Shown here in pieces: positions 10,452 to 30,428 of a stretch of DNA of 64,000 nt; within the stretch, counting starts at the first letter, position 1, and every line of letters begins with the position of its first letter. The notes beneath the pieces were generated by a model. The model saw nothing but the letters and a program-made list of their open reading frames with translations. It did not search any database and was not told the origin of the DNA. The position numbers and the translations under genes are program-made. This DNA comes from Gammaproteobacteria bacterium (GTDB taxonomy: Bacteria; Pseudomonadota; Gammaproteobacteria; Pseudomonadales; Azotimanducaceae). The stretch lies in the NCBI GenBank assembly GCA_026707735.1, contig JAPOWH010000002.1, positions 62,001-126,000 of the forward strand, in the 5' to 3' direction.

Positions 10452-12596
10452 ATGACTTTTGACACTCAACACGTACGCGCAGTAATCGAACGAGCAAAGT
10501 CGGAAGAACGAACAATGCTCACGCCTGATGAGGCTCTTGCCGTAGCAAATGCCTACCAAATACCGGTTCCGGCGCAGCAGATTGCAAATTCTGCTGAGGA
10601 AGCTGCATCCATCGTGGAATCCAGAGAGCGACCGCAGGTATTTAAGGTTATCTCCAACGACATCGTCCACAAGACGGATGCTGGAGCAGTGGTCACAGGA
10701 GTTGTCGGTGCGGATGCAGCGCGTGACGCCTATGACGGTGTTGTGTCGAACGCGAAGAGCAGCAATCCCGATGCAAGCATTGAAGGTGTGCTTGTTCAAG
10801 AACAAGCGGAAGCAGGGCTTGAGGTCATTGTGGGCGGCACGACGGATCCCGTGTTCGGAAAGCTGGTTGCCTTTGGGTTGGGCGGGATCATGGTGGAAGT
10901 GCTGCAGGACGTAACTTTCCGCTTGGCGCCAGCCACTACAGAGGATGCGCGTGAAATGCTGGATGAAATCTCTGGCAGCGAGATGCTGGACGGAGTTCGA
11001 GGCATGCCGGCGGTGGATAGAGGCGGCATTGCGCGTCTCACTGCTTCCGTCAGCCAGCTCATTGCTGATGTTCCGCAGATCAGTGAAATCGACCTCAATC
11101 CTGTAATCGCAACTGCAGATGGAGTTTGCGCCGTGGACGTGCGCATTCTGTTGGATTTTGAGGAACCAGTTCAACGTCCGCGGCCATCCCAAGAGGAAAT
11201 CCTGGCCGCCATGTCGAGAATCATGCGACCGTCGGCCGTTGCCGTGATCGGCGCTTCGGCGGAAGAAGGAAAGATCGGCAATTCCGTCATGAAGAATCTC
11301 ATTGACGGCGGCTACCAGGGACACTTGTATCCGGTCCATCCTCGTGCCGAGGAAATCCTTGGCAAGAAGTGCTACGCCTCAGTTCTCGACATTCCCACCG
11401 AGGTGGACATCGCGATCTTCTGCATCCCTGCGAGGTTTGTGGCTTCGGTGATCGCAGAATGCGGCGAGAAGAACATTGCAGGAGCAATTCTCATTCCATC
11501 GGGATTTGCGGAAATCGGGGAGCACGAATTGCAGAACGAAGTCGTCGAAGCGGCTCGCAAGCACAACGTTCGCCTTATGGGACCCAACATCTACGGGTTC
11601 TACTACACGCATCACGACCTTTGCGCGACATTCTGCACGCCCTATACGGAACGCGGTCCCGTAGCACTTTCGTCGCAGAGCGGCGGAGTGGGCATGGCCA
11701 TCATTGGATTCAGCCGCAGCGCGAAAATGGGCGTGTCGGCGATTGTTGGTCTGGGGAACAAAGCGGACATAGACGAAGACGATCTGCTGACATTCTTCGA
11801 AGAAGATCCCAATACGCAAGTTGTAGCAATGCATGTGGAGGATCTGAAGGACGGACGAGCGTTTGCCGAAGTTGCATCTCGAGTTTCGAAGAAAAAACCC
11901 GTCGTCGTCCTAAAAGCGGGTCGAACCCAACAAGGCGCGCGAGCAGCGAGCTCACACACTGGCGCATTAGCCGGGAACGATCGCGTTTACGATGCCGTGC
12001 TACGCCAAAGCGGTGTGATTCGCGTTCACTCACTGAACGACATGCTGGAGTACGCACGGGGTTTGGCTGTGCTACCAGACCCAAAGGGCGAGAACGTTTT
12101 GATTCTGACAGGAGCAGGTGGATCGGGTGTTCTCTTGTCCGATGCGTGCGTCGACCACGGTTTGAAGCTCATGGGTATGCCTGAGGATTTGGACGCGGCG
12201 TTTCGCGAGTTCATACCCCCATTTGGGGCGGCTGGAAACCCGGTTGATATCACAGGGGGAGAGCCGCCGAGCACGTATTCTGCAACTATCGATCTTGCAC
12301 TGCACGACGAACGAATTCATGCTCTAATTCTTGGATATTGGCACACCATCATTACTCCACCGATGGTCTTTGCCGAACTATTGGCTGATGCTGTTGAGAG
12401 GGCTCGAGAGGAGGGAATTGACAAGCCAGTTGCATGCTCTCTTGTTGGAGATGTTGAAGTTGAGGAGGCCTGTGAATTTCTAAACGACCATCAAGTACTT
12501 GCATACCCATATACAGCTGAGAAACCGGTTGCGGTGTTGGGAGCAAAGTACCAATGGTCTCATCAAGCCAGAATGCTCGACTCACCGATTGGTTGA
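10452..12596 (+). CDS. ADP-forming acyl-CoA synthetase (acetate-CoA ligase family)
   Basis: A 714-residue fusion of the two ADP-forming acyl-CoA synthetase subunits, in beta-alpha order. Residues 1-240 are the ATP-grasp half with the second phosphohistidine in VHKTDAGAV (H73) and GLGGIMVEV. Residues 252-400 are the CoA-binding Rossmann domain (VIGASAEEGKIGNSV). Residues 400-700 are the succinyl-CoA-synthetase-like flavodoxin domains with the catalytic histidine H502 in SSHTGALAG. Both phosphorelay histidines are present, so it should be active: acid + CoA + ATP to acyl-CoA + ADP + Pi, or the reverse. Its divergent neighbour suggests it activates, or makes ATP from, the acyl-CoA used or produced there. 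The acid is unknown. Confidence 0.85.
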   Translation: MTFDTQHVRAVIERAKSEERTMLTPDEALAVANAYQIPVPAQQIANSAEEAASIVESRERPQVFKVISNDIVHKTDAGAVVTGVVGADAARDAYDGVVSNAKSSNPDASIEGVLVQEQAEAGLEVIVGGTTDPVFGKLVAFGLGGIMVEVLQDVTFRLAPATTEDAREMLDEISGSEMLDGVRGMPAVDRGGIARLTASVSQLIADVPQISEIDLNPVIATADGVCAVDVRILLDFEEPVQRPRPSQEEILAAMSRIMRPSAVAVIGASAEEGKIGNSVMKNLIDGGYQGHLYPVHPRAEEILGKKCYASVLDIPTEVDIAIFCIPARFVASVIAECGEKNIAGAILIPSGFAEIGEHELQNEVVEAARKHNVRLMGPNIYGFYYTHHDLCATFCTPYTERGPVALSSQSGGVGMAIIGFSRSAKMGVSAIVGLGNKADIDEDDLLTFFEEDPNTQVVAMHVEDLKDGRAFAEVASRVSKKKPVVVLKAGRTQQGARAASSHTGALAGNDRVYDAVLRQSGVIRVHSLNDMLEYARGLAVLPDPKGENVLILTGAGGSGVLLSDACVDHGLKLMGMPEDLDAAFREFIPPFGAAGNPVDITGGEPPSTYSATIDLALHDERIHALILGYWHTIITPPMVFAELLADAVERAREEGIDKPVACSLVGDVEVEEACEFLNDHQVLAYPYTAEKPVAVLGAKYQWSHQARMLDSPIG

Positions 12597-13088
12597 GCTA
12601 TGGATTTCAATCGAACAGTACATGAGTGTGTTCGCATTCATTTAACAATAAACACAGACAATTTAATCGTTTGTTGTCATGTTGCGCAGCGCATCTTGAT
12701 CAAGTAGGCATTTGTAAGACGTATGCTTCGGTTCCCGCTCGCAATGATTTTTGGTAAGTCACGGAACTAATATTGCATAGTGGGGACAGTTATAGGTGAT
12801 CTTGAGAACAGGAACTTTCCAAGAAAATCTTCCTAGTAGCTGACTTCAGTTGTGTAGTCCTAACGCTTTGCAGTGACAAACCAAGCGCTTGTCCTCGGAC
12901 ACATTGATTTGCCCACTCTATCTTGAATGTGTCGAGTGCAATGACATTACACGGGCCCATGTCTAAATCGCGTCCTACTAATTCCCACCAAAATACAAAT
13001 GCAACTAACACCGTATCGTTCTGCTTTGTAGTCGTCGGTCAAATGGCTAACTCTTCACAATTAAGAGATTAGGGCATTTTCTGGATAA
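12597..13088. other. About 490 bases without a supported gene
   Basis: The gap lies between the ends of two convergent genes. Only short frames with no family resemblance are present, and no clear hairpin terminator was identified. Confidence 0.4.
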
Positions 13089-14993
13089 TCAGCTTCTCAG
13101 CTTTAGAGACCGGTTATCGCTTTCATATGCGGGACCAATCGTGTAGTTGTCCAACTCCAAGTCTGGATTCATCATAGAAGTAGTGTAAATTGCTTGGTAG
13201 GGAGCGTCTAACTCCGTTAAGCGTTCCACAAGGACCTGCTGGAATAGGTGACTACGTTCTACTTCCATTCCCTTGTCTTCGATGTTGTCGATCAGTACGA
13301 ATCGTGGATGGAAGAACTTCGCGTCGGACCCAGCGGCTAACAAAAGGCCAAGGATAGCCGCATTTTTAAGAATGACGTTACTGCTCTCCGCAAAGTTCAA
13401 AAGTCCATCAACAAAGATAGAGTCACTAGTGAAGTCAATTTGAACCCGTTTCGCTCCTACAAATTCCTCCTGTCGTTCTAGATCGGCACGGAGTATGGAG
13501 GCAGCGCAACTAGAAACACGTGAAAGTGCGTTCGATCGACGATTCATCGACTCATCCCGTAGTGTTTTCGCTTTCCCCTTTAGAGATTCGATCTTAGTCT
13601 CGTAAGCGACTTTTGACCCGACAAGTTCTGCTACTTTTGCTGCCAGACCAAGGCTCTTCTCCTGGAAATCAATCTCAGCGTCAATATAGCCGAGCCTGTT
13701 GATACGAGAAGCCAGGAAGGCCTCTCTCGGCGAATTCACTCCAGAGTACTTGATGTTGAACGTAGTCAACTGTTTCTCGTACTCACGTCGGAGTCTACGA
13801 AGCTCTCGCAGCATTTCTTGCCTTTCACTAGTTTTTTGTTCAATTAATTGCCTTGATTCACGAGTCTGTATGTCTAGATCAAGCCTTATCTGGTTGTATC
13901 GGGCTCCCTCTTTCTCAACATCAAATGGTGCCTTACATACGATACAATGCGACTTAGGCGTGTAAGCATTTAGCTCCTCCCCGCATGCAGGGCAGTGCGA
14001 GAATTCAATTGAGCCAATTGCATGAAAAGTCGCTTCTGCAAAACTTAACTTCTCCTTAAGCTCTCCAAGAAAGTCGACAAAGTCTCCTATTTCGCGAATT
14101 TCGAATTGCAGTAGTTTTTCTGAAGACTCCAGCTTTGCAACCGCACTTTGCTTAGTGATCAACTTCCCTTGTTCGTTCTTCCTCGCACCTAAGTATGCCT
14201 TAACCTTCCCCACTTCGACTAGTTCATCAACTTTACTAATTTCATCTCGAAGAACCGAGGCTTCACTGCTTAATTCCTCAATTTCAATATTTATTTCTTC
14301 TGGCATTTTGAGTTTTTCGCCGTAAGGCATTGCTTTATGCAATGTCCTAATTTGTAAATTGGTTTCGTTAAGACTTGCCTCTAATTCGCGAAGTTTCAAA
14401 TCGATGTCGTAGAGTTCATAGTCGCTAATCCCACAGATAAGGTCACCCACTGCTTCACGAATGCTCCGTGTGTCGAACTGCTCAAATCTGAACAAACGCG
14501 GTGCGGGAGTACGTTGATCCGAATAGCAGAGCCGAAGAATTTGATGCATGGTGATGTTTGCAGCACCTTCACTCTGTGCCTCTGGAATATTCGTTGAGCG
14601 GAACATAAGTTGCGAGAAACTCTCGTGATTGGCCTGTCTTCGGATTGGAAACCGTTCCCATCGTTCGGTAGAGCTCTCTAAAGCCTCTCCCATCGCGCCA
14701 AAATAGACCAATATTGGTTCTTGGTGCTTCGCAACTTTTCGTCTTAGTGTTAATCGTCCATGTGTTGTTTCAATTTCAGCTTGCACTTCATCGCAAAGAC
14801 CGGCTGCTTCTTTCCAATCTTCAAACTCTCCTCCTAGAATGAAGAAAATAAAATCCGCAATTGTCGATTTTCCAGATCCATTCTGACCACGAATGATGTT
14901 TATACCTGCATGGAAATTTTCCTCGTAGGCGATGTGAACACCTTGCAAAATGCGTAGGCAGTTGAGACGTAAGTACGCCCAAGTTTCTGTCAT
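13089..14993 (-). CDS. ABC-three-component system ATPase (Rad50/SMC-like)
   Basis: A 634-residue Rad50-type ATPase. Walker A is GQNGSGKST at 36-44. Long charged helices (about 195-320 and 355-520) form coiled coils flanking a zinc-ribbon hook with cysteines at about 334, 337, 350 and 353 (CPACGEE, CIVCK). A Walker-B-like strand (RFVLIDNIED) and a C-terminal lobe follow at about 560. Its start overlaps the end of the middle-component gene by 4 bases, giving translational coupling as third gene of an operon with the hydrolase at 15.5-16.7 kb. This is the layout of ABC-three-component conflict systems, in which the ATPase is thought to sense or process nucleic acid and license an effector. The antiphage role is inferred from family context. 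Confidence 0.75.
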   Translation of the reverse strand: MTETWAYLRLNCLRILQGVHIAYEENFHAGINIIRGQNGSGKSTIADFIFFILGGEFEDWKEAAGLCDEVQAEIETTHGRLTLRRKVAKHQEPILVYFGAMGEALESSTERWERFPIRRQANHESFSQLMFRSTNIPEAQSEGAANITMHQILRLCYSDQRTPAPRLFRFEQFDTRSIREAVGDLICGISDYELYDIDLKLRELEASLNETNLQIRTLHKAMPYGEKLKMPEEINIEIEELSSEASVLRDEISKVDELVEVGKVKAYLGARKNEQGKLITKQSAVAKLESSEKLLQFEIREIGDFVDFLGELKEKLSFAEATFHAIGSIEFSHCPACGEELNAYTPKSHCIVCKAPFDVEKEGARYNQIRLDLDIQTRESRQLIEQKTSERQEMLRELRRLRREYEKQLTTFNIKYSGVNSPREAFLASRINRLGYIDAEIDFQEKSLGLAAKVAELVGSKVAYETKIESLKGKAKTLRDESMNRRSNALSRVSSCAASILRADLERQEEFVGAKRVQIDFTSDSIFVDGLLNFAESSNVILKNAAILGLLLAAGSDAKFFHPRFVLIDNIEDKGMEVERSHLFQQVLVERLTELDAPYQAIYTTSMMNPDLELDNYTIGPAYESDNRSLKLRS

Positions 14994-15520
14994 ACGGGCC
15001 TCCTCAATCCGGTGTTTGAGCGAAGCCGATGTGGAGCTGTTTCCGAAGCAGTGGCGAAGTCTTCGGTAAGGAATGAAACTAGGTCTCTTTCACCAACTCC
15101 AGTCATTTCAGTCAATTTAGAAGCTAGAGTAATTTGGCCTACGTCTGTGAGACGTGCAACTCCTCGCTGCAATTCAGGAATGGAGATCAATCCCTTTCCT
15201 CCCATCGCGCGGAGGGCTTCTTTCTGAATTGGCTCCATTTTGCTGAAGAGCAATGCAGGAGCGGGGTAGGCAAGAAAGGTTGTTTGAGGTTGGGGAATAC
15301 GCAGGGCCAAGAACCGTTGTCGTGTCGCCCGACTCATCCTACTTCTGTGCAGTAGCGGCGGATTCGCAAAATAAAAGTCTGCTATATAGAGTCGTTCGAT
15401 ACCTGGCGGCTCGGGATATGCGAAGATTAGGGCACTAAATCGGCGAATGCAGTCATATACATCCAATTGCGGGTACCAAAGCCGGTCGTTCACACAGGTA
15501 CATCCCAACGAATGTAACAC
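14990..15520 (-). CDS. ABC-three-component system middle component
   Basis: A 176-residue small protein between an effector gene and a Rad50-like ATPase, matching middle components of ABC-three-component systems. The N-terminal half has a compact aromatic-rich region (RRFSALIFAYPEPPGIERLY) and the C-terminal half looks like a winged-helix segment (EALRAMGGKGLISIPELQRG), with a polar tail. Middle components are thought to bridge the ATPase and effector. The start at 15520 overlaps the end of the hydrolase gene by 31 bases and its stop overlaps the ATPase start by 4, so the three are tightly coupled. Assignment rests mainly on position and general pattern. Confidence 0.6.
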   Translation of the reverse strand: MLHSLGCTCVNDRLWYPQLDVYDCIRRFSALIFAYPEPPGIERLYIADFYFANPPLLHRSRMSRATRQRFLALRIPQPQTTFLAYPAPALLFSKMEPIQKEALRAMGGKGLISIPELQRGVARLTDVGQITLASKLTEMTGVGERDLVSFLTEDFATASETAPHRLRSNTGLRRPV

Positions 15521-16665
15521 TGCTCGGTTAGGAAATAAACAGCACTCAATATCGACTTTGCGTCGAATTTTGTATCTCCTATTTGCTTTCCAGCTAACGG
15601 GTCGATCACTAGATCTTGAAGCGCTTGTGCGATTGAACTGTACGATGCTGATTGACAGATTAATGGGTGATAAACGTGTGTAACGAACCTCGTTTCGACT
15701 TCTGACAAGAGGGCGTCATGACTGTTACGGGCGGAGCCAAAAAGGCCCGTCTTGCTGTATCGACGTGCAAAGCTGTTTTGTGCGTTGTTCGCGTAGCCGT
15801 ACTCGTGCTCGCGTCGCGCGTCGAGTAACTTCCGGTGCAAGTCGCGTCTATCATCCGAACTTTTTTCTAGATAGTATTCCGAAAATGCGGACCGACCCGA
15901 CTCCTCAATGCGAAGAACTAAGTTATCGATGTGACGCTTCACTCCCATGTAAACAATGTCGTTACGACTAGTCGGTTTGCAAATACTCATGTGATCTCTG
16001 TCAACTGCGGTCGGGCTTGATCCTGCTACTCCTGGATCAGCTGATTCTCGGGTCACCACTAGTATGTTTTTCGTCTTATTTTTTTCGTAGTAAGTTACTG
16101 TATTCAGATCCTCATGGTTGTTTGCGAATTTTCTATAGTGTTCATTTAGGTCCTCAAGGAGTCCAGTTTCATTTGCGAGCAGCGAGACAAGCTTTGAAGT
16201 ATTGGGAATCGCTTTGGCTAGCTTTGCCAGCCCCGACCCGAGATGCGGTGTTGCAATGAAAAACACCAATCTGACTGATCGCGCAATTCGTCTCCGGTCT
16301 TCGTCCTCCGATTCCGTAGACTTTCGCAATATCAATTTGACAAGGAGTCCGCCAAGGCTATGCGTAACGAAAACGATTGGCTTCTTGCCAATACCATGAT
16401 TTGCCAACTGCTCCAAAATATTCGCCGCTCGTTCAATCAAATCCATATCAATTCTTGAGGGCTTTTTGAAGACGAACGCGGGGTAACCTAGAGTGAAAAT
16501 GGATACTTTCTTCAAATCTGCGAGTAGCCACTTCGGCCAGAAATCTTCTGACTCGTCGTTGCTCCAAGTATTGATTGCTTCTCCCTCGAGCCCATGAACG
16601 AATATAACGTCGACAACTGACGACTCCTTGGCTGAGATCACATGCACCTGCGCTTCGCCAGTCAC
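15490..16665 (-). CDS. ABC-three-component effector: alpha/beta hydrolase with C-terminal partner domain
   Basis: A 391-residue protein in two parts. Residues 15-235 are an alpha/beta hydrolase of the DUF676/PGAP1-like lipase type: oxyanion segment VIFVHGLEG, nucleophile S103 in FVTHSLGGLLVK, IATPHLGSGL, a candidate acid D210 (ESADPG) and histidine H225 (DRDHMSICKP). Residues 270-391 resemble the C-terminal domain shared by ABC-three-component effectors, ending in a helical segment with CYIRWD. It is first of the three-gene operon. The likely toxic activity is ester or lipid hydrolysis on infection, by analogy with hydrolase effectors; the substrate is unknown. Confidence 0.7.
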   Translation of the reverse strand: MTGEAQVHVISAKESSVVDVIFVHGLEGEAINTWSNDESEDFWPKWLLADLKKVSIFTLGYPAFVFKKPSRIDMDLIERAANILEQLANHGIGKKPIVFVTHSLGGLLVKLILRKSTESEDEDRRRIARSVRLVFFIATPHLGSGLAKLAKAIPNTSKLVSLLANETGLLEDLNEHYRKFANNHEDLNTVTYYEKNKTKNILVVTRESADPGVAGSSPTAVDRDHMSICKPTSRNDIVYMGVKRHIDNLVLRIEESGRSAFSEYYLEKSSDDRRDLHRKLLDARREHEYGYANNAQNSFARRYSKTGLFGSARNSHDALLSEVETRFVTHVYHPLICQSASYSSIAQALQDLVIDPLAGKQIGDTKFDAKSILSAVYFLTEQCYIRWDVPV

Positions 16666-16675
16666 ACTCTCTCCT

Positions 16676-17285
16676 CTACCAAATCACACTCGGTTGTTCC
16701 AAACACCACGGCAAGAACCAGCTATTCTGTTGGGGTCTCGACTTCATATATGTTGAAACTAATATGGCAACCGTGGACACGCCATCTAATCGGGTCGTAG
16801 ACTCGTATGTAGCTCCGCGCGCGGGACAACTTCCTGACTTCTTGCATTGAATGCTAGTGCTCAATGAAATTATCTAACGCTAATTCCAATTAAGGAAATC
16901 TGCTTCACCCGACAACGTTTTGCTCGAAGCAGAGAAAGGTGGTAGCTTTGACCTCTTCGGCGATCAATTACGGTGTGCTTTTGCTTGATCATGAATGTTC
17001 CGTATGGCATTGTGGCTATCCCCGCAATCGAGACAACGAATCTGAGTAATGTTTCTCGAACATCCTTGCACGTTCCACGTCGAGCCAGCAGTGACGCCCT
17101 ATTGCGCTGCTGAGCGCTACGTCTAGTGCACTTCGTCATGGGTGGCCATTGTAGAGTGGTAAGTTTTCTTCACACGTTGTTTCGGGTTCGTCTGAGCCCA
17201 ACAACGTGCTCGACGCGGAAGTGAAATCCATTGGCGTAGCTTCCATATCGATTTTGGCAAGACTTTGGTACCGGTTTACATAGAA
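16676..17285. other. About 610 bases without a supported gene
   Basis: The region holds the promoter of the ABC-three-component operon and the start-distal flank of the restriction gene. A minus-strand frame at 16870-17139 is open for 89 codons, but its composition is unconvincing. An alternative frame reads QIRCLDCGDSHNAIRNIHDQ, which faintly recalls the zinc ribbon end of TnpB-like proteins, too weak to call. Confidence 0.35.
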
Positions 17286-18218
17286 TTAGATAGGATCAAG
17301 AATCTTGGGACTCTTAAAGACCTCTCTGCCATGCCAATGCAAGAATTGAGGACTAGGTAAGGGGAACCCTCGCCGAGGGAGTGCCCGTAGGGTCCTATTA
17401 TCGTATTGTCCCAAAGCACTGTCTACACCGACACCCCTGACGTCTGGGGAGACCTTCACCTTAAGTTCAGGAATTACTGTGAAGGCGCCTTTGTCGAAAA
17501 GCCGGTGATGAAGAGAACAGAGCGCTAGTCCATTTTCGACAATTGGGGGACCTTTGTACTCATGCCATTTTATATGTGCTGCATCAATAGCTAAGGGTTG
17601 GTCAAGAAATTGGGCTGAAAACTCACAAACTGCACATGTATTTCTGTATGCTAACAGTACACGTCTACGGAAGCTTGGATCGCGCCAACGACGTCTTGTC
17701 CATGTCCACTCATCATGATCTGTCGCTTCACTATAGTGAATCCCGTTCATTTGAGCGATTGTTGCTTCTAAGACTTCCTCTTGAACCACCGGAGGGAAGT
17801 GTTTGGCTACCAAGATTTCGGCAATTTGTAAAGCAAGCGTTCTGTTGTTTTGCAGAATGGCGTAGACAGGTTTGGTCAACCCTCCAGAAATTTCGTACTG
17901 CCTCAGGTCTGATACATACGCATCCTTACTTTTCGTTGTGCGTATTAGATTTGCGTTGTCAACTTCCCAAACTCCATCACTTTGAAGACGCCAAAATGGA
18001 TGGTGGGTGTTCTTGGGCCTTCCATGTGGTCCAAATCGGTCCAAGAGTAGAGTAAGCTCCTGATGCACCAATTGGTAGGTTGCCAAACGCCTCTGACCAT
18101 CCACACAACGACCAATTGCCCAAAGCACTAGCAAAGGTTTATGTGGTGCACGCTTTTCGCCAGACCTGCCAATGCGCATATTTGAAAACCGATGCAAAAT
18201 ATCGGTTTCTTCAATCAT
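17286..18218 (-). CDS. Phosphorothioate-dependent restriction endonuclease (SBD-HNH)
   Basis: A 310-residue protein of the predicted restriction endonuclease group COG3440. The N-terminal 140 residues match the sulphur-binding domain pattern of ScoMcrA-type enzymes: EKRAPHKPLLVLWAIGR, then FGPHGRP, then HHPFWRLQSDGVWEV. The C-terminal part is an HNH nuclease with C195-x2-C198, the AAH motif at 213-215, N229 in VENGLAL, C234 and histidines 237-238. All zinc and catalytic positions appear intact. Such enzymes cut DNA carrying phosphorothioate backbone modification. A broken dndDE remnant lies 1.8 kb away, consistent with a host that no longer makes the modification. Specificity is inferred from sequence resemblance. 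Confidence 0.75.
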   Translation of the reverse strand: MIEETDILHRFSNMRIGRSGEKRAPHKPLLVLWAIGRCVDGQRRLATYQLVHQELTLLLDRFGPHGRPKNTHHPFWRLQSDGVWEVDNANLIRTTKSKDAYVSDLRQYEISGGLTKPVYAILQNNRTLALQIAEILVAKHFPPVVQEEVLEATIAQMNGIHYSEATDHDEWTWTRRRWRDPSFRRRVLLAYRNTCAVCEFSAQFLDQPLAIDAAHIKWHEYKGPPIVENGLALCSLHHRLFDKGAFTVIPELKVKVSPDVRGVGVDSALGQYDNRTLRALPRRGFPLPSPQFLHWHGREVFKSPKILDPI

Positions 18219-18399
18219 TGTTTCTCAATTCATGCTCTAACAAATCGATTTTAGCAATCTTACAACTTGACTTGGCCAATTGACGACAAGACTCGGCGAC
18301 GTGTTGTCGAACCGGGCATTCCATAGAATTGATTGAACCGACAACAAATCTATTTCTTCCACGTGGGGAATTTTGGTGTCGTGTGACAGCAAGCTTTCC

Positions 18400-19136
18400 G
18401 CAACTTCGTGCAGTCGATGCGGGAAAGCAGGCGATGCCCGCACTGCTGAATGGACAAGGCCTATCGGAATGGACGAGACTACCGGGGCCCCGCCGCGCTT
18501 TCCTTGCCGACCACCCTCCTAGTACGGTTGCGGACGCACCTTCAACTGAACGACGTTCTCGCGCATGAGGAAGCCGGAGAGGTGGTCCGTCTTTCTGCAG
18601 GCCCTGGCGGCAGGAGATCGATCGCCGGTCAATTTGCACAGGCACGGAGACGTGGGAGTCTCCCAACGGACTCTTTGGCGCTGGCGCAATGTGGTGAACG
18701 AGGCTCTCGGTTTCGAGGAAGATCGCCGAAGCGTGGAGCGTCCCGGGACCACTTGCCCGTGCTGACGGCCATCGACCGCAGCGGAAACCGTCTGAAGCCA
18801 GTCATGGGGTACCGCGACGACATCAGGGAGGTTCTGCAGGATTGCATCGAGGAGGCTCGGTGCTGTGCGCCGACGGTCTTGTGACTTACCGGAATTTGTC
18901 TTGGGACGCGGAGGCCGCCGTCCGTGTCGTCGTGCTAGGCCATCGAAGGAAGAAGCTCCTGCCCATTGTCAATCAGTCTCTGAAGCGTCGGTTCAGCTTG
19001 GCCAGAGTGAACGCGCTGTACACCCACCTCAAGAGCTTTGTTAATGAACAGGCACGAGCGGTATTGACACGGTATCTGCAGGTATATCTGGGGTGGTCCA
19101 GGCCATTCGAAAGCCCCTGTTCAGCGAAAGCGTAGT
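18400..19136 (+). pseudogene. Degenerate IS1595-family transposase, copy A
   Basis: The protein is recoverable only by switching frames: YGCGRTFN, a stop, SRMRKPERWSVFLQALAAGD and VSQRTLWRWRNVVNEAL, then a gap, then VLCADGLVTYRNLSWDAE and SLARVNALYTHLKSFVNEQA. These align in order with the better-preserved copy at 28.4-29.5 kb. The first catalytic aspartate region is deleted and there are at least two stops and several frameshifts. A TAG precedes the YGCGRTFN segment at the same place as the stop in the other copy. Confidence 0.7.
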
Positions 19137-19351
19137 GCTGACTCTGCCCACACAAGACGAATTCAACACTTGACTACGATTGAGCCCAAGGGTAGTTACG
19201 TTAGCAGCGAGGATAGCGACAAACTAGTAGTATGTATCTTGGTATGTAATTCGACGTTGGAAATGCCTGCGGGAAAGACCGAGTGTAGTGCCCTTCGATG
19301 CGGATTCAGTTGTCAGGTTACTCATAGAATGACGTTTAAAGGAGGACGGCT

Positions 19352-19612
19352 TTGGTAGGACAGAACTTTCCAATATCGGAATATTACAGATCCAAAATTT
19401 TGGATGCCAAGACGTTGTCAAATCGTGGAGGTCGGTGGACTGCAATTTTGTTAATAGAGGATCCAAAAACTACTAGACCAATTGTTAGCCTATATAGATG
19501 GCAGAACACCGATAAAGGATGGAAGGTACGCAGTCGAATGCATATTCGGAATAAAACGGATGCAAAGCAGATGGTCGAATCAATAGAGAGATTTGCCCAT
19601 AGTCTGGACTGA
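19352..19612 (+). CDS. Small hypothetical protein
   Basis: An 86-residue protein with a TTG start supported by a near-perfect ribosome-binding site (AAAGGAGG, seven bases upstream). It has alternating charged and hydrophobic strands (WTAILLIEDPKTTRPIVSLY, then GWKVRSRMHIR) and a C-terminal helix (DAKQMVESIERFAHSL), suggesting a small alpha/beta domain. No family is recognised. It lies between IS debris and truncated metallo-hydrolase and dndD genes. Confidence 0.55.
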   Translation: MVGQNFPISEYYRSKILDAKTLSNRGGRWTAILLIEDPKTTRPIVSLYRWQNTDKGWKVRSRMHIRNKTDAKQMVESIERFAHSLD

Positions 19613-19638
19613 GAGGGGTTGAACCTTTGCTAATTCAG

Positions 19639-19992
19639 TCAATGCATTCCCCAGGCCAAAGAGGTGGGTTCAACAATCGAAGTAGAGGAAATCCCAAGTT
19701 CAGCTTCAACATAGTCAGCTAAAGCTTTCGCATTTCCGGCTCTAGTTCCGTCTGCGATCAAGCGCTTGGGTTGGATCGCCTTTATAAGTTCGATTGTACC
19801 TAGAAAGTCGGCGTGGTCTGTGAGTGCGACTCGAGTGACTCCGTTTGCTAGCACCATAACGGGTTCTTCCCGGGGTACCATAAACGCACTAAGAAAGATT
19901 CTGCTCTCTGGTGTTGTTGAATTTAGGTACGTCTTGTCTCTAGTCTCAATTAGAGAAATATAGCGTTCGCTGTGGATTATTTCTCTCGCTCA
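19639..19992 (-). pseudogene. C-terminal fragment of an MBL-fold (RMMBL-type) hydrolase
   Basis: The frame is open from 19992 down to the stop at 19639. It contains a segment like the final motif of metallo-beta-lactamase-fold nucleases: ALTDHADFLGTIELIKAIQP followed by KRLIADGTRAGNAKALADYV. Normal family members are several hundred residues long with an upstream HxHxDH core; here that core is missing and the frame ends where the dndD fragment begins on the other strand. The abrupt junction near 19.98-19.99 kb looks like a rearrangement endpoint. The assignment rests on the HAD motif and its context. Confidence 0.45.
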
Positions 19993-21001
19993 GACCGAAG
20001 CCAATGAACTTCTTGAGAAGTTTGCTACCAAGCTCAATATTGCGCTTGATTCTGTGAATCAAGCAATCGTTGCGGACGTATTGAGCGACTCTATTCGGAC
20101 AGTAGATCGAACTTCGCTCTCATTTGACATCAGCCGTAGGGCACTTGGTCGCATAGATTACACAGTGCGTCACGCGATCCAAGATGCACAAAGACGCGTC
20201 AATCAAACTTGTAAGGAGCTCTCCAGATCGAAGAACGCGCTAGACAACATCACACTTCGAATAGAGCAAGCTCCAGATGAAGTCTCGTTGGCTGACGACT
20301 TTGAAAAGTTGGCGGGATTCAATAAGCGGATCAACGAAGCGGCGGCGGAAGTAGCTGTACAACGTCGCGAACTAAAAGCGAACTATACAAATGCCATCAA
20401 CATTGCACGATCGTTGCGTGACAAACACAGGAGTTTGACCGAACGCCAGGAGTCGAAGCTGCCCATAGAGTATGCGGATCGCGTCCGACAACTGCTACGC
20501 GAACTCCGGCAAACATATGCTGCTCAAATAATCCGTCGACTCGAACAGGAGTTTGGATCAGCATTCCGACGTCTAGCTCGAAAGGAAGACATCGTCGCCG
20601 AGGTACTCATCGATCCTCGCAACTTCTCGGTAACACTCATGAATAGTGAGAAGGTCGAAGTTTCAAGGTCGCATCTCTCAGCCGGAGAAAAACAGATCTA
20701 TGCCATTGCGATGTTGGAAGCACTAGCTCGGACTTCTGGTCGTCGCCTACCCGTAGTTATCGATACACCTCTTGGAAGACTGGACTCACAACATCGAGAG
20801 AATCTCGTTGCTCATTACTTTCCTAATGTGAGTCATCAGGTGCTGCTGTTGTCCACGGGCACTGAAATCGACAAGTCTCTCTATCAAGAGTTGTCTCCTC
20901 AAATTAGCCATGCATACGAGATTCGATACGATGAAGAGGAAAATACTGCCCAGTTACATGAGGGTTACTTTTGGCAAGCAGAATTGAGAGGTATAAATTG
21001 A
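19985..21001 (+). pseudogene. dndD: DndD, 5'-truncated (DNA phosphorothioation ATPase)
   Basis: About 338 codons of the C-terminal half of DndD, the SMC-like ATPase of the DndABCDE phosphorothioation complex. The coiled-coil segment runs from about 20.1 to 20.5 kb. The ABC signature region follows (SHLSAGEKQIYAIAMLEALA), then Walker B and D-loop (LPVVIDTPLGRLDSQHRENL) and the H-loop segment (QVLLLSTGTEID). The N-terminal Walker A half is missing and the frame begins abruptly at about 19.985 kb with no plausible start. dndB and dndC are absent upstream. It still overlaps dndE, so the 3' end of the operon is intact. The complex cannot function from this locus alone. Confidence 0.8.
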
Positions 21002-21345
21002 TTCCTCATAGATTGCGAATATCCAAGCGCGCAAGCACGCGACTTTCGTTCTTGAAATCCAAAACCGGGCTGACACCGAACATTCTTTGCCGATTTGCGT
21101 TTCTTATGTCGGCGCGCGAGATGCAAAATGTTTCAAGAACCGCACTTGAGCTCGGCGGACAAGAGTTTAACTCATCCACCCTCTTTGGAGATCACCAAGA
21201 ACTCTACGAACTGATGCTGGTTTACTACATACACGTTACCCAGGACCCGAGAGACCCAAGCCAAATAATCGCTTGCCACATTGAGAACGGACTCCACAAA
21301 ATGGGTCACATACGAAACTTGGAAGACGTAGCCAAACTCCGCTGA
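20998..21345 (+). CDS. dndE: DndE, DNA sulphur modification protein
   Basis: A protein of about 115 residues with the DndE pattern: HRLRISKRASTRLSFLKSKT, GLTPNILCRFAF, then GGQEFNSSTLFGDH and a C-terminal IACHIENGLHKMGHI. DndE is the small DNA-binding subunit of the phosphorothioation complex. Two TTG starts are possible. The one at 20998 overlaps the dndD stop as TTGA, the usual coupling; the one at 20971 would add nine residues. The gene appears intact but its partners are truncated or missing, so it is likely non-functional in modification unless other dnd genes lie elsewhere. Confidence 0.8.
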   Translation: MIPHRLRISKRASTRLSFLKSKTGLTPNILCRFAFLMSAREMQNVSRTALELGGQEFNSSTLFGDHQELYELMLVYYIHVTQDPRDPSQIIACHIENGLHKMGHIRNLEDVAKLR

Positions 21346-21396
21346 TAAACAACGAAATAGAAATAGTTAGACAAGAGGATAACAAATGACTAAATT

Positions 21397-21628
21397 GGGA
21401 ATTACTGCTCGAAGTAACCATGTATACTACCTGTGGGATTTAAGGGGATTGACTGGCTATTTCTGCTCGAAGTGTACAGAAGATCACAATTAGGCTGCGC
21501 GACAGGCAGATTCTTGCCTTTTTGGAGTGGTCCACGGGGACTGTTGCTTGCTCGACCACTCTCATCTGTGTTGCGCACGCGACTTTTGCCGTAGTCAAAT
21601 AGCTTGTTTGTTTAAAGCAGTAATTCCC
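21397..21628 (-). mobile_element. MITE-like element, copy 1
   Basis: A 232-base non-coding element bounded by inverted ends GGGAATTACTGCT and AGCAGTAATTCCC (13 bases, perfect). The reverse complement aligns along its full length with the second copy at 30168-30401, including GTGCGCAACACAG, GGTCGAGCAAGCAACAGT and AGAAATAGCCA. It carries no open frame of note and sits 51 bases after dndE. A TT dinucleotide on both sides may be part of a target duplication, which is uncertain. No matching transposase is in the window. Confidence 0.75.
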
Positions 21629-21696
21629 TTCTATTTCGGGCGTTGCTGTAGCTAGCTTATGTGGAATTCTGTTCGAGATCATTTGGTCAGGCCCGT

Positions 21697-22035
21697 TTAG
21701 AATAATGCTAGATGCATTTGCATCCATGTGAGCGAGTACACGCAGAATATGCACCCTACGTAGACCGCGAGCATGATCTTGTTTTGACTCGCGGTGAAAC
21801 CGGCAACACCACCATTGAGTTTGCGGAATGAGTGGAGTTTCGCCAACGGATAGCCTGTGGCAACAACCGTCAGGGTAAGTAATAGGAAACTCTTCCTAAC
21901 TAATGTGGCTAGCGAATCCCAATTCAAGAGAAAGGCCAGGCAATAGGCTGCCAGCACACCGACGAGCGTCCAAATCAACAAGGAGAGAAGCGGATACTCT
22001 CGAAATTGTTCGTCTATGTAGCCAAGAAGCTTCAT
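21697..22035 (-). CDS. Small integral membrane protein
   Basis: About 112 residues with three or four hydrophobic segments: PLLSLLIWTLVGVLAAYCLA, FLLLTLTVVATGYPLA and IMLAVYVGCIFCVYSLTW. The ATG at 22035 (MKLLGYIDEQ) is preferred; a TTG at 22104 would add a basic leader. The family is not recognised and no catalytic motif is visible. It stands alone next to the MITE-like element. Confidence 0.5.
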   Translation of the reverse strand: MKLLGYIDEQFREYPLLSLLIWTLVGVLAAYCLAFLLNWDSLATLVRKSFLLLTLTVVATGYPLAKLHSFRKLNGGVAGFTASQNKIMLAVYVGCIFCVYSLTWMQMHLALF

Positions 22036-22229
22036 CGAATTGCGCGTTGCTCTGGCGTTCGCAGCTCGTTTAGATGTTACTGTGAAACGGACCAGCAATA
22101 CCAACAGCAGAGTATTGATATTGCTCCTTGAAGCGTGCGCTGTCGCCCAGTTCGCGACTAGTTGATTGCATCGTGATTTCGCGAAACAACCTCATTAACC
22201 CCTACCTGCAATAGAGATCTTGAACCTAT

Positions 22230-23066
22230 CTAGAACCCTTTGAACTTAGCATCGCGCTTCTCGCGAAATGCCTGAGCTCCCTCGCGTCCATCCCATGACA
22301 TCCCAACAAGTGGAATCGCGGATTCGGACCACTGCATTGCCGTGTCAAAGTCCATGTTTGCAGTTCTTACAGCCAAAAGCTTGCCAATTTTCTGTCCGAT
22401 AGGAGGACCTGCTTCAATTTCGAGAGCCAAATCCATTGTTCGGCTCTCAAGCTGTTCGGGATCGACAAGATAGTTTGAGAAACCGGCTTCATGGGCCTCT
22501 TCTGCGCTCATGAACCGTCCGGTCATCATGAGTTCCATGGCCTTCCGCCATCCGACCACTTTGGGTAGAGACCAGAATCCACCCAAATCGGCATAAAGTC
22601 CTCGCTTCACATAGGCGACCTGAAATCGTGCAGCCGTCGAGATAACAGCAAGGTCGCAATGACTGGCAAGATCGAATCCTGCACCCACGCAGGGACCGTT
22701 CACCATGGCAATGATCGGCACTTCCATTCGTCGCAAGGCAATGTAGGTCTCGGTTTCATGCCGAAAATTGAGACGATACCCCTCGATGTCCGCGGTTCCA
22801 GCCTCATCCAATCCTTCGGGCTTGGGATCTGGATTCGGATTTGCTGCTCCGCTGAAATCCATTCCGGCGCAGAATCCTCGTCCCGCACCCGTGATCACTA
22901 TGCAGCGTACGGTTCGGTCGAATCTTGCGTGGAACAGAATCTCCCGCATTTCCTCGAGTAGAGGAAAAGTCAGCGCATTGAGTTTGTGGGGGCGGTTCAG
23001 CGTGAGCCACAAGATTCCGTCTGTTTCGCCTCTTCTTTCGCTAAGAATGGGATGATCTTCCGACAT
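22230..23066 (-). CDS. Enoyl-CoA hydratase/isomerase family protein
   Basis: A 278-residue crotonase-fold protein of normal length. Oxyanion-hole segments are GAGRGFCAGMDF (about 60-72) and NGPCVGAGFDLA (about 122-133). The third motif KRGLYADLGGFWSLPKVVG holds the position where many members carry an acidic residue; here YADLGG keeps an aspartate. An insertion rich in Pro and Asp after the first motif (NPNPDPKPEGLDE) is like that in some actinobacterial and marine members. Crotonases hydrate, isomerise or cleave acyl-CoA thioesters; the exact reaction cannot be read. It is single on the minus strand, divergent from a methyltransferase gene 111 bases away. Confidence 0.85.
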   Translation of the reverse strand: MSEDHPILSERRGETDGILWLTLNRPHKLNALTFPLLEEMREILFHARFDRTVRCIVITGAGRGFCAGMDFSGAANPNPDPKPEGLDEAGTADIEGYRLNFRHETETYIALRRMEVPIIAMVNGPCVGAGFDLASHCDLAVISTAARFQVAYVKRGLYADLGGFWSLPKVVGWRKAMELMMTGRFMSAEEAHEAGFSNYLVDPEQLESRTMDLALEIEAGPPIGQKIGKLLAVRTANMDFDTAMQWSESAIPLVGMSWDGREGAQAFREKRDAKFKGF

Positions 23067-23177
23067 GGGATTGGCCTAGTATCAGTTTGGTCCAAATATC
23101 GTACCTTGCAGGCAATTGACGACCAAATTCCCGTGTGAATCGACTAGAGGCATTGGTCTCGTGGAAAATACTCGCTC

Positions 23178-23987
23178 ATGAGAACAAAAGGACCGAAAGA
23201 GATCGTGCGATCGTCAAAACGGAATCACCAACAGCTCAATCGCGATGCATGGAGCATGAAGGCTGAAGAATACGCAGATCCTGCCGAACTCAAGTGGGAT
23301 TCGCCAGACCCAGTCTGGGGAATTTGGCAGATCCCCAACGAGAGCATTGCCATGCTTCCAGAAAGTCTCAAAGGCAAACGGTGTCTGGAGATAGGCTGTG
23401 GAACAGCGTATGTGGCTTCATGGATGGCCATGAGAGGAGGCGAGTCCTTTGCCATCGATCCGACTCGAAACCAACTGACTACAGCAGCTCGATTAAGGGA
23501 TGAACATGATCGCCACGTCGTATTGCTTGAAGCATTCGGCGAGCAATTGCCATTTCCAGACGAGACCTTCGATTTCGCCATATCGGAGTATGGAGCGTCT
23601 CTATGGGCGGATCCCTACCAATGGGTGCCTGAAGCGGCTCGCGTCCTAAGGCCAGCTGCTCAGCTTGTCTTCATGACTTGCCATCCAATATCCCAACTGT
23701 GCTGCCCCGAACAACCCGATCTACGCAATGGAACAGCACTTCTGCGACCTTACTTAGGCATGTATGAACTGCATTGGTCCGATCCTCCAACCGTTGAGTT
23801 CCAACTCCCCCACGGCAAGTGGATAGAGCTTCTGCGTTCCTGTGGGTTCGAGATTGAAGAATTGCACGAACTCGGCGCACCTCCTGATGGCAAGAGCCAG
23901 TATGTGTGGGCGGACGCGAATTGGGCACAATCATGGCCGACAGAGGAAGTTTGGGTGGTTAAGAAACGCTCTAGCAGACTGCCATAG
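23178..23987 (+). CDS. SAM-dependent class I methyltransferase
   Basis: A 269-residue protein. Motif I LEIGCGTAYVASWMAMRGG lies at about 70-88, the acidic strand 2 residue in SFAIDPTRNQL, and the post-I segment PFPDETFDFAISEYG with ASLWADPYQWVPEAARVLR at about 125-160, as in Methyltransf_11 proteins. The C-terminal part (FEIEELHELGAPPDG, then WADANWAQSWPTEEVW) is shared with a gene fragment at 30.43 kb, so the genome carries or carried a second copy. The substrate is unknown. A basic N-terminus (KRNHQQLNRDAW) precedes the fold. Confidence 0.8.
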   Translation: MRTKGPKEIVRSSKRNHQQLNRDAWSMKAEEYADPAELKWDSPDPVWGIWQIPNESIAMLPESLKGKRCLEIGCGTAYVASWMAMRGGESFAIDPTRNQLTTAARLRDEHDRHVVLLEAFGEQLPFPDETFDFAISEYGASLWADPYQWVPEAARVLRPAAQLVFMTCHPISQLCCPEQPDLRNGTALLRPYLGMYELHWSDPPTVEFQLPHGKWIELLRSCGFEIEELHELGAPPDGKSQYVWADANWAQSWPTEEVWVVKKRSSRLP

Positions 23988-24430
23988 AGATGTAGGTCAG
24001 TCCGTGTATTTACCACTCATAAGCTCGAAGGGTTTTTCGCAATTGTGTCTTCGGTACTCTCTTCGTTTGAGAATTCGCATGGAAGCTTTTCACCGTTAGC
24101 CACTGTCCAATTTGAACGAAGCAATTCGCTTAGAAAGAAGGTGCTTCGATTGGACAGCTGCGATCACTCCATTGTAAGCACAGTTTATACTGTATAATAT
24201 TACATGTTTATAAAGATAGCATAGAACTCTTGGAGGACCTATGTGTTGGGAAGCCTTCGCATCCCGCAATGTGGTAGCCGTCCGTCTCAAGTGTCATCAC
24301 TAGCCGATGCTGGGCAGTTGAGCGTGCAAACAGCCTTTACCAGCAAGAGCTCTCAATGACGAAATTTGGCGGTCGGAAGTACACCGACTTGGTTTCGATC
24401 ACATAGATTAATGGGAGAAAGCAATTGACA
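23988..24430. other. About 440 bases without a supported gene
   Basis: No frame with recognisable content on either strand. The promoter of the following membrane protein must lie here. Confidence 0.4.
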
Positions 24431-25216
24431 ATGTTCGTACGCAAGAAGAAGTTCCAAAGAGAGTTCATTCGAGTTAGCCTTAGCAACTCCGATTTGGCTT
24501 CCTTAGCTAATAGGATTTCTAAGCAAGCAAGAAACGACGAAGGTGAAATCTTGATCACAGTAGAGACCACAGACGGTCTAGACTCCTTTGAGTCTCACGA
24601 TCCAGCTTTTCTCACAAGTGCGGACATGCCATCAAAAATTAAGAGTGTCCACATCTCCTATGGCACCTACGCTGCACCGATCAGAGCTGTGTTGTCGACA
24701 ACAGAGAATCGTTTCGTACAAGAGATTCAAGGATCACTATTGTTGACAGTTGAAGGAACTGCTGCGGGTGTAGAACAGTTGTTTCGAGATCTTGAGCGGG
24801 AACTGGCGGCAAGACAAGTTTTTGGCTCGTTGATCGTACGAGCGAACGAGAAGATTTGGCCCAGTGTGATTGGAGGTGCGTTGACTGGTGTTGCGGTATT
24901 CTGCACATTTGATATTGTAATAGACGTGTGGTTGAGGTTTTACCCGGAAATTAAAGGATCATTAAGCTTCTTTGTCGTTGGATTCATTGGAATTTTTTCG
25001 TCCCTGATTTGTTTTGTTGCTAGTCCCTTCTATTTTTCTCACATTGTTAAGAAAAACTTGCCGCCTGTAGAGTTTTGCAACCATGTTACTCATCGTAATA
25101 CTAATGTAAACAGCAAGTTCTTTTGGATCGCGACAATTATAGTGATTCCAATCTTCGTCAATATATTCTCACAGTTACTTTTCTCTGTATTAGGATTCTG
25201 GTTTACTGGTAGCTAG
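24431..25216 (+). CDS. Hypothetical membrane protein with cytosolic N-terminal domain
   Basis: A protein of about 261 residues. The first 140 residues are soluble with alternating strands and helices (IRVSLSNSDLASLANRIS, then GEILITVETTDGL and GSLLLTVEGTAAGVEQLF). Three hydrophobic segments follow: WPSVIGGALTGVAVFCTFDI, LSFFVVGFIGIFSSLICFVA and FWIATIIVIPIFVNIFSQLL. The ATG at 24431 is preferred over a TTG at 24425. It is AT-rich towards the 3' end. The family is not recognised; a soluble domain joined to membrane helices near defence genes would suit a membrane effector, but nothing in the sequence proves that. Confidence 0.55.
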   Translation: MFVRKKKFQREFIRVSLSNSDLASLANRISKQARNDEGEILITVETTDGLDSFESHDPAFLTSADMPSKIKSVHISYGTYAAPIRAVLSTTENRFVQEIQGSLLLTVEGTAAGVEQLFRDLERELAARQVFGSLIVRANEKIWPSVIGGALTGVAVFCTFDIVIDVWLRFYPEIKGSLSFFVVGFIGIFSSLICFVASPFYFSHIVKKNLPPVEFCNHVTHRNTNVNSKFFWIATIIVIPIFVNIFSQLLFSVLGFWFTGS

Positions 25217-25345
25217 TCTCCTTGGATTTGAGATGCCAACGCTGCATAACCGACAAGAGTCATTTTTATTGCTCAATAATAGTGGGAATCAAAATAGTTC
25301 CAGCCCGTGCAAGGCGTTGATTCTCTTGGTGTAGCGGAAATGTGA

Positions 25346-28016: not shown

Positions 28017-28274
28017 ACGCTATCCTAATGTTGTTCCTAAGTTTCTGGATCAACTGCGGTTGAAACCGCTAGACACTGCACACTATTAGCAACCATTCCT
28101 AAAGGTCGACGTCGCCAGTTGGCGTGCTTCCAACCCAATTGATATGTCCTATGGATTCTTTTAGGCTCAATTCCAGTTACGAGTGGGATCGGCTTTTGAA
28201 AGTAGAACTATATCGTTGTTGATTGGAGAAATCAAGAAATTTGGGACTATTGTGGCATTGTCAGCAAGAATGGC

Positions 28275-28315: not shown

Positions 28316-28390
28316 ACGGCGTCGGGCGCCATCCGAATTCCCCACGTCGGCCAAGCTAGGGGGATCCCGTCCATTGTCCGTTGTCAGGGT

Positions 28391-30401: not shown

Positions 30402-30428
30402 TAGAATTTGTACTGTTCGCGCACATTG

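What the first reader, a model, noticed from the sequence alone, without database searches (positions are those of the whole stretch)
17286..21345. A phosphorothioate-cutting restriction enzyme beside a wrecked phosphorothioation operon
Seen: an intact SBD-HNH type gene (17286-18218, HKPLL and FWRLQSDG patterns, complete HNH) lies 1.8 kb from a dndD that has lost its N-terminal Walker A half, followed by an intact dndE. Known: SBD-HNH enzymes of the ScoMcrA type attack phosphorothioate DNA, so an active Dnd system and this enzyme are normally incompatible. Inference: the genome switched from self-marking by phosphorothioate to attacking it, with the junction near 19.985 kb as the scar.
Basis: partly seen in the sequence, partly recalled or inferred. 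Interest (0 to 1): 0.7.

Follow-up and report, generated by a model that had tools for sequence, protein, structure and literature searches.

The report
Sulfur-DNA cutter beside broken sulfur-writing operon
A bacterial genome keeps an intact-looking enzyme predicted to cut sulfur-tagged DNA next to the wreck of the genes that would have written such tags; in relatives that still carry both, the writing genes are often damaged too while the cutter stays whole, which hints at a conflict being resolved by losing the writer.

Summary
An intact 310-aa SBD-HNH gene (17286-18218, minus) scores 273.9 bits against NCBI's phosphorothioated-DNA endonuclease model (cut-off 180). 1.77 kb away a dndD begins only at model position 322, followed by a complete dndE. 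The genome has no dndC and no other dndD. Of 97 genomes (own included), 15 carry an over-cut-off SBD-HNH, 7 an over-cut-off dndC, and 4 both, always adjacent; a named MAG contig adds a fifth. So the genes do sit together, and the window nuclease is sister to one of those linked copies: a writer-plus-reader locus that lost its writer is likelier than a later switch. But linked writers are often damaged: window (dndC gone, dndD beheaded), G002 (DndC PP-loop Asp lost), G016 (stop inside dndE), 3 of 6 linked loci against 0 of 32 unlinked, while 6 of 6 linked nucleases are whole. G010 and G069 keep motif-intact writers, so incompatibility is not absolute. The numbers are small and post hoc. SBD-HNH genes in dnd loci are already published; this is a decayed member of that kind, set in a hotspot nearly empty in two congeners.

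The parts
17286..18218 (-). intact SBD-HNH nuclease, predicted phosphorothioate-dependent (type IV) restriction endonuclease
   Evidence: NF045808 273.9 bits, cut-off 180; PDB SBD relatives; pocket and HNH positions aligned with 21 relatives
18389..19189 (+). decayed insertion sequence of the IS1595 (ISXO2-like) kind
   Evidence: DNA matches elsewhere in own genome and in G007 and G003, 3 of 18 genus genomes in all; of four copies looked at, the one with the longest open frame (L178:423-1529, G000:C1) hits PF12762 at 5.5e-7, 30.2 bits, cut-off 27
19639..19989 (-). possible C-terminal remnant of a metallo-beta-lactamase-fold (RMMBL) gene, its frame open up to the same junction
   Evidence: PF07521 only E 0.046, 14.2 bits, cut-off 21.6; frame; weak
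19991..21001 (+). dndD remnant: C-terminal half, no Walker A; signature and Walker B kept
   Evidence: TIGR03185 positions 322-650; PADLOC DndD 5.8e-100 at 353-657 of 657; motifs
20971..21345 (+). dndE, complete
   Evidence: PF08870 4e-21; TIGR03184 69.1 bits, just under its cut-off 71.85
12570..22228 (.). variable hotspot between a CoA-ligase gene (10452-12596) and an enoyl-CoA hydratase gene (22230-23066)
   Evidence: flanks 0.78 kb apart in G007, 0.53 kb in G006, 3.0 kb in G004, 7.8 kb in G003; these are the four congeners with a strong match to the left-flank gene
13089..16665 (-). neighbouring ABC-three-component-like operon (DUF676 esterase + CTD9, MC5, AAA/ABC ATPase) in the same island
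   Evidence: PF20285, PF20291, PF13476; PADLOC LmuB and LmuA matches

Best explanation
The stretch is a hotspot holding the remains of a dnd writer / SBD-HNH reader locus. The writer is dead: no piece of dndB or dndC is left in the window, dndC is not found in the assembled genome, and dndD is cut in half, leaving dndE without partners. With no detectable way to put phosphorothioates into its own DNA, the host is safe from it, and the nuclease most likely works as a plain type IV barrier: the SBD recognises a sulfur-marked site on incoming DNA and the HNH domain cuts nearby, excluding dnd-bearing plasmids, islands and phages. Shown by sequence: intact nuclease gene with pocket and catalytic residues, broken dndD, dndC not found, IS remnant, nearly empty sites in two congeners, nesting of the nuclease in a dnd-linked subclade, damaged writers in two of the linked relatives. 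Inferred: that it cuts PT-DNA, that the genome is PT-free, that nuclease and dnd remnant came as one locus, and that loss of the writer was tolerated or favoured because the nuclease cuts only marked DNA.
For: Family and motifs. Writer broken and not replaced: TIGR03185 322-650 only, TIGR03183 no match in own genome, no DndB or DndC piece in the window by tblastn at E 1. Window SBD-HNH is sister to the dnd-linked copy of G002 (98/96), in a clade with the dnd-linked copies of G010 and G016 (92/88, short of the tool's star) and the unlinked G055 (100/99). The dndD remnant does not reject the same partners: window+G002 p-AU 0.225; window+G002+G010+G016 p-AU 0.287. In G002, G010, G016 and SB0670 the SBD-HNH lies about 80-240 bp downstream of dndE on the same strand; in G069 it converges on dndE about 10 bp away. 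11 of the 15 over-cut-off carriers among 97 genomes have no over-cut-off dndC, and no dnd piece at E 1e-3 lies in the stretches (11-19.5 kb) fetched round 12 unlinked SBD-HNH genes, L081-L092 (one of these is a second copy in G002), which fits an enzyme silent on unmarked DNA. Hotspot, IS remnant.
Against: Order and strand differ from all five linked relatives: here the nuclease is divergent from and upstream of dndD with about 1.77 kb between, so a simple deletion from a C-D-E-SBD operon does not give this order without an inversion. By raw identity the dndD remnant is nearest to SB0670 and RHO2 (57-58%), not to G002 (37%). The DndD tests are weak: window+SB0670 is not rejected either (p-AU 0.379), and G002's DndD is a long branch whose place is unsure. 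Expression and activity are untested; Bsp48385I, a dnd-adjacent relative, had only low residual activity regardless of PT (PMC7461809 section 27). About 4% of the genome may be missing; other PT writers (Ssp) were looked for only through the DndC model.
Confidence: 0.58

Rival explanations
1. Independent arrivals: the hotspot received an SBD-HNH gene and, separately, a dnd operon that later decayed; their closeness is only defence-island clustering.
For: Opposite strands and 1.77 kb of IS and other debris between them; the same site holds other cargo in G003 and G004 and little in G007 and G006; best raw identity of the dndD remnant is to SB0670/RHO2 rather than to G002; an ABC-three-component-like operon sits in the same island.
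Against: The window nuclease nests with dnd-linked copies (98/96 with G002; 92/88 with G010 and G016), whereas 11 unlinked SBD-HNH copies of its own genus are 31-36% identical to it; the DndD tree does not reject shared ancestry with those partners.
Confidence: 0.25
2. The SBD-HNH is not an attacker of PT-DNA but the restriction arm of the dnd operon that uses PT as a self mark (as proposed by Rakesh et al. for SBD-containing HNH genes in dnd loci, and like DndI or SspE), now orphaned.
For: Linkage to dnd genes in five relatives and in at least two SBD-HNH lineages; co-occurrence among 97 genomes; proposal in PMC10853773 (passages).
Against: Nucleases that cut DNA lacking PT harm cells without the writer (DndFGH, DndI: PMC11662687 passages), yet here and in G055 this subclade persists intact without dndC, and in G002 and G016 beside a damaged writer; no NTPase domain such as SspE or DndI use was found; tested SBD-HNH homologues restrict PT-marked plasmids (PMC6224610 and PMC7461809, passages and sections).
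Confidence: 0.1
3. The nuclease is a relic too: full length but silent or inactive, so nothing was switched.
For: It lies amid decayed genes and an IS remnant; the position of the base-contacting lid Tyr of ScoMcrA (Y164) is His here, and Tyr, Asp, Glu, Gln, Phe or Leu in the 21 relatives aligned; expression is untested.
Against: No stop in 310 codons, HNH and zinc-site residues kept, score far above the family cut-off.
Confidence: 0.05
4. Assembly or binning artefact: the junction at 19.985 kb joins two organisms' DNA.
For: The relatives are mostly fragmented assemblies, and one 4.4-kb contig of G003 is 99.9% identical to this window over nearly its whole length, so mixing between genomes of this set may happen.
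Against: The junction lies inside a long contig (window is C18:62001-126000) with flanking genes in the same order as in congeners on both sides; contamination estimate 0.04%.
Confidence: 0.02

Closest known systems
SBD-HNH phosphorothioate-dependent restriction endonucleases (NF045808; EcoWI is the example in PMC7461809; ScoMcrA and SprMcrA carry the same SBD)
   Same: SBD with HK...PF pocket residues, HNH with Cys positions, family score over the curated cut-off
   Different: no SRA domain found (about 45 residues between the SBD match and the HNH match), unlike ScoMcrA; Y164-equivalent is His and A168-equivalent is Arg; activity untested
SBD-containing HNH genes inside dnd loci (Rakesh, Aravind and Krishnan 2024, PMC10853773: 698 taxa with wHTH+SAD+HNH; Lutz 2020, PMC7461809: Bsp48385I)
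   Same: nuclease gene adjacent to dnd genes in five relatives, three of them in the same subclade as the window copy
   Different: two-domain form without SAD/SRA; in the window the writer is destroyed and gene order and strand differ
Dnd phosphorothioation operon (dndBCDE)
   Same: dndD C-terminal half and dndE are recognisable members
   Different: no dndB or dndC, no Walker A: not a functional writer
PT-sensing restriction partners SspE and DndI
   Same: a nuclease that senses phosphorothioate beside a PT writer
   Different: those have DUF262 NTPase + DUF1524 HNH domains (PMC11662687 passages); in the window protein only HNH_2 was found by Pfam

Membership tests
SBD-HNH PT-dependent restriction endonuclease | score over curated cut-off of NF045808 | tested here: met
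   273.9 bits, cut-off 180
SBD-HNH PT-dependent restriction endonuclease | sulfur-pocket residues (ScoMcrA H116, R117 or Lys, P165) | tested here: met
   H26, K27, P74 by alignment with 5zmo and 21 relatives; Y164 is His, A168 is Arg
SBD-HNH PT-dependent restriction endonuclease | HNH catalytic and zinc residues | tested here: met
   C195, C198, H215, N229, C234, H237, H238 the same in all 22 sequences
SBD-HNH PT-dependent restriction endonuclease | cleaves PT-DNA but not unmarked DNA | not testable with these tools
   needs the enzyme assay
functional dnd writer | dndC present | tested here: not met
   no TIGR03183 match at E 0.001 in own genome (95.8% complete)
functional dnd writer | full-length DndD with Walker A | tested here: not met
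   positions 322-650 only
functional dnd writer | dndE present | tested here: met
   PF08870 4e-21
Dnd restriction module DndFGH | dndF, dndG or dndH in the genome | tested here: inconclusive
   TIGR03238 and TIGR03237 gave nothing, but neither rang in any of 14 control genomes
dnd-linked SBD-HNH locus (Rakesh type) | nuclease phylogenetically among dnd-linked copies | tested here: met
   98/96 with G002, 92/88 with G010 and G016
dnd-linked SBD-HNH locus (Rakesh type) | intact dndCDE adjacent | tested here: not met
   remnant only
PT-sensing effector SspE or DndI | DUF262 + DUF1524 domains | tested here: not met
   only HNH_2 found; PADLOC hits were HNH and mREase_IV models

The most novel reading that the evidence does not exclude
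SBD-HNH-linked dnd loci are being caught in the act of losing their writers: a resident reader that cuts sulfur-marked DNA selects against the writer beside it.
Probability: 0.28. Interest if true: 0.65.

Novelty: new member of a known kind. Interest (0 to 1): 0.45.

Why it matters
dnd operons are oddly sporadic. Attack by PT-dependent endonucleases has been suggested as one cause and was called untested in the introduction of Jian 2021, which itself argues for transcriptional interference (PMC8569181, passages). This genus is unusual: 13 of 18 genomes (own included) carry an over-cut-off SBD-HNH against 4 of 369 (own included) in a class-wide sample. It holds reader-only, reader beside motif-intact writer, and reader beside damaged writer states of one nuclease subclade. 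That makes a clean comparison possible: test one subclade's enzymes against their own partner's mark, a rival mark and bare DNA, and count writer lesions beside readers across all genomes.

Tried and rejected
Rejected: that the two features are chance readings (family scores); that a complete dnd lies elsewhere in the assembled genome; that dnd-linked SBD-HNH copies are dead (five of five linked copies have no stop and keep the HNH and pocket residues); that every linked writer is dead (G010 and G069 keep the DndC PP-loop, DndD motifs and a whole dndE; SB0670 keeps DndD and dndE but only the end of its DndC is on the contig).

Weakness of the writer-decay reading. Lesions: 3 of 6 linked loci (window, G002, G016) against 0 of 32 unlinked loci, in which the DndC PP-loop Asp, the length of the DndD frame and the wholeness of dndE were checked (L063, a contig end with only the tail of dndD, left out). 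Fisher p 0.0024; without the window, which was chosen because it is broken, 2 of 5, p 0.015; without the window and with the near-identical G010/G016 pair counted once as lesion-free, 1 of 4, p 0.11; writer against reader within the six linked loci, 3 against 0, p 0.18. All are post hoc and ignore relatedness, and the G016 stop could be an assembly error. 'Unlinked' means no tblastn match to the window nuclease at 1e-5 in the fetched stretch. Departures from near-invariant columns do not track linkage: unlinked L062 has 16 in DndC and 8 in DndD, unlinked G067 13 and 6, linked G002 3 and 7, linked G069 1 and 8.

Led nowhere: single-protein scan of viral contigs (no relative); plasmid searches with the debris ORFs (no match); Pfam on the debris (nothing over cut-off). 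The SBD-HNH alignment scan of viral contigs gave 23 loci, of which one (L198) had a weak DndC-like match nearby. Four plasmid SBD-HNH neighbourhoods, of 70 plasmid records with a match, showed no dnd gene. DndFGH models were uninformative. A structure prediction was still unfinished and was not used. The pattern used for dndE failed and was replaced by a profile.

Literature: seen as passages or single sections only: PMC7461809 (passages; sections 27 and 26), PMC6224610, PMC10853773 (passages 28; abstract and outline 29), PMC11662687 (abstract and outline 25; passages 26), PMC3009677, PMC7470945, PMC8569181, PMC12707154, PMC12193691; others only as search listings. No paper was read whole. That the PP-loop Asp is needed by this enzyme class is recalled, from no call.

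Full report
What is there. The gene at 17286-18218 (-) is an uninterrupted 310-codon SBD-HNH gene. NCBI's curated model for phosphorothioated-DNA restriction endonucleases matches residues 6-302 at 273.9 bits (cut-off 180); its N-terminal part aligns with the solved sulfur-binding domains of ScoMcrA and SprMcrA. The pocket residues named in PMC6224610 (passages) map to H26, K27 and P74; the lid tyrosine Y164 is His here and varies among the 21 relatives aligned. The HNH and cysteine positions checked are the same in all 22. 1.77 kb away dndD starts abruptly: TIGR03185 matches positions 322-650 only, and full-length DndD of RHO2, G010 and G002 align to the window only from residue 320-323, beginning at 19976-19991. 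The remnant still shows LSAGEKQ and VVIDTPLGRLD with no stop in 336 codons, so the cut looks recent compared with decay. dndE is complete.

The rest of the genome. The window is C18:62001-126000 of a 3.37-Mb, 29-contig assembly, 95.8% complete. It has no dndC match, no second over-cut-off dndD (one weak 20.5-bit ATPase match aside), and no piece of DndB or DndC in the window. It has a second full SBD-HNH on contig C10 (304.8 bits) and two partial matches under the cut-off. DndFGH could not be judged because the models used rang in no control genome. dndA and dndB were not searched for in the whole genome.

The site. Between a CoA-ligase gene ending at 12596 and an enoyl-CoA hydratase gene beginning at 22230 the window holds 9.66 kb. 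The ends of the matching stretches are 0.78 kb apart in G007, 0.53 kb in G006, 3.0 kb in G004 and 7.8 kb in G003; these four are the congeners with a strong match to the left-flank gene among 18 genomes. Of five G003 cargo ORFs scanned one is a PADLOC Orf5/HEC-06 protein with weaker SspE similarity and four had no PADLOC match, nor had two G004 ORFs. So the site is a hotspot, with defence-like cargo in at least the window and G003. An ABC-three-component-like operon shares it in the window. A decayed IS1595-kind element (about 18389-19189) lies between nuclease and dndD. A possible metallo-beta-lactamase-fold remnant ends at the same junction as dndD (weak).

Are Dnd and SBD-HNH incompatible? 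Experiment says so for ScoMcrA with the S. lividans dnd cluster (PMC3009677 passages), and three homologues cut transfer of a dnd cluster 10- to 1000-fold (PMC6224610 passages). As genes they do occur together in this lineage. Of 97 genomes (own included), 15 have an over-cut-off SBD-HNH, 7 an over-cut-off dndC and 4 both (G002, G010, G016, G069). In all four the nuclease abuts dndE: downstream on the same strand in G002, G010 and G016, convergent in G069. A named contig, SB0670, adds a fifth; it was the only one of 31 named dndD loci with an SBD-HNH match (tblastn 1e-5), so the linkage is not general. In a class-wide sample of 369 genomes the counts are 4 (own included), 7 and 1, the one case (G141) on separate contigs. 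Fisher tests give p 0.010 for the 97 genomes, 0.074 for the class sample and 0.52 within the genus, none corrected for relatedness. G010 and G016 are near-copies of one locus. The five linked nucleases pass the family cut-off and fall in at least two, probably three lineages: the window/G002/G010/G016 clade, SB0670 (joining it to the window rejected, p-AU 0.00035; to the whole clade 0.0235) and G069.

But are those neighbours working writers? Of 36 DndC sequences with a readable PP-loop, 35 keep SGGKDS; G002 alone has SGGKAS, and its DndD signature reads LSEGEKH where 36 of the other 37 readable rows keep LSAGE and one reads MSAGE. All five conserved DndC cysteines remain in G002, so this is suspicion of inactivity, not proof. 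In G016 dndE is split by an in-frame stop; its near-copy in G010 is whole. With the window that makes lesions in 3 of 6 linked loci against 0 of 32 unlinked loci, while 6 of 6 linked nucleases are unbroken. Fisher p is 0.0024, 0.015 without the window, and 0.11 if G010/G016 are counted once as lesion-free; the numbers are small and the test was thought of after the fact. G010 and G069 have no lesion in what was checked, so coexistence with an apparently working writer remains possible.

Origin of the window copy. The window nuclease is sister to the dnd-linked copy of G002 (98/96), within G002+G010+G016+window (92/88), with the unlinked G055 outside (100/99). Eleven unlinked copies in its own genus are 31-36% identical to it, against 50-54% for G002, G010 and G016; the linked copies of G069 and SB0670 are 40% and 38%. 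The DndD tree puts the remnant in a well-supported group of 12 that contains four of the five SBD-linked dndD genes but does not resolve it further, and G002's DndD is a long branch; common ancestry with G002 or with G002+G010+G016 is not rejected (p-AU 0.225 and 0.287), nor is pairing with SB0670 (0.379). I therefore favour joint arrival followed by loss of the writer, at 0.58, over separate arrivals at 0.25. Strand and order speak against the simplest version of joint arrival.

How it most likely works. An enzyme that cuts DNA lacking the mark would harm a cell that lost its writer, as reported for DndFGH and DndI (PMC11662687 passages). This subclade survives intact without dndC here and in G055 and beside damaged writers in G002 and G016, and 11 of 15 carriers among the 97 genomes have no over-cut-off dndC. 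That fits PT-dependent cutting and an attacker role. Survival beside motif-intact writers in G010 and G069 then requires that the enzyme ignores the partner's motif, is tightly regulated, or is weak; Lutz et al. offer a similar list, including non-functional dnd clusters (PMC7461809 section 27), for which G002, G016 and the window are candidates. I rank different sequence specificity first for G010 and G069, as inference.

Novelty. SBD-containing HNH nucleases in dnd neighbourhoods are in print (PMC10853773, 698 taxa with a wHTH+SAD+HNH form; PMC7461809, dnd clusters near under 3.6% of homologues, and Bsp48385I). The window is a decayed member of that kind. I did not see a report of writer lesions beside intact SBD-HNH genes in the searches, which cover only the held open-licence library and were read as listings plus the passages named.

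Noticed in passing
13089-16665: ABC-three-component-like operon (DUF676 esterase with CTD9, MC5, AAA ATPase; PADLOC LmuB and LmuA matches) in the same hotspot.
   Followed up: partly
23954-30608: A second variable site: 6.65 kb here against 62 bp in G007 and 128 bp in G003; it holds a DUF6602 / PD-(D/E)XK-like gene (25346-26257) and a PLDc-domain gene (26796-28016).
   Followed up: no
22908-27255: A 4.4-kb contig of congener G003 (C72, L159) is 99.93% identical to this stretch, although the matching parts of G003's C11 are 70-82% identical to the window: cross-binning or a very recent transfer.
   Followed up: no
L203 (G141:C112, 9060-11735): Three SBD-HNH genes in tandem in one genome that also has a dndC on another contig.
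   Followed up: partly
genus of the window (18 genomes): SBD-HNH over cut-off in 13 of 18 genomes (own included), two of them (G000, G002) with two different lineages, against 4 of 369 in the class-wide sample.
   Followed up: partly
L079 (G002:C63), 6878-8425: Full-length DndC with the PP-loop Asp replaced by Ala (SGGKAS), the only such row among 36 readable, beside full-length dndB, dndD, dndE and SBD-HNH.
   Followed up: partly
L078 (G016:C3), 7908-8279: dndE split by an in-frame stop between a full-length dndD and an intact SBD-HNH.
   Followed up: partly
L155 (G003:C11), 9674-11977: At the same hotspot in G003 a PADLOC Orf5/HEC-06 protein with SspE-like similarity.
   Followed up: no
L077 (G010:C54), 14654-19281: Divergent from the dndCDE-SBD operon lies a second DndD-like ABC ATPase gene, a small gene and a 719-aa gene, resembling the CxC/Pbe-type arrangement (the naming is recalled, not tested).
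   Followed up: no
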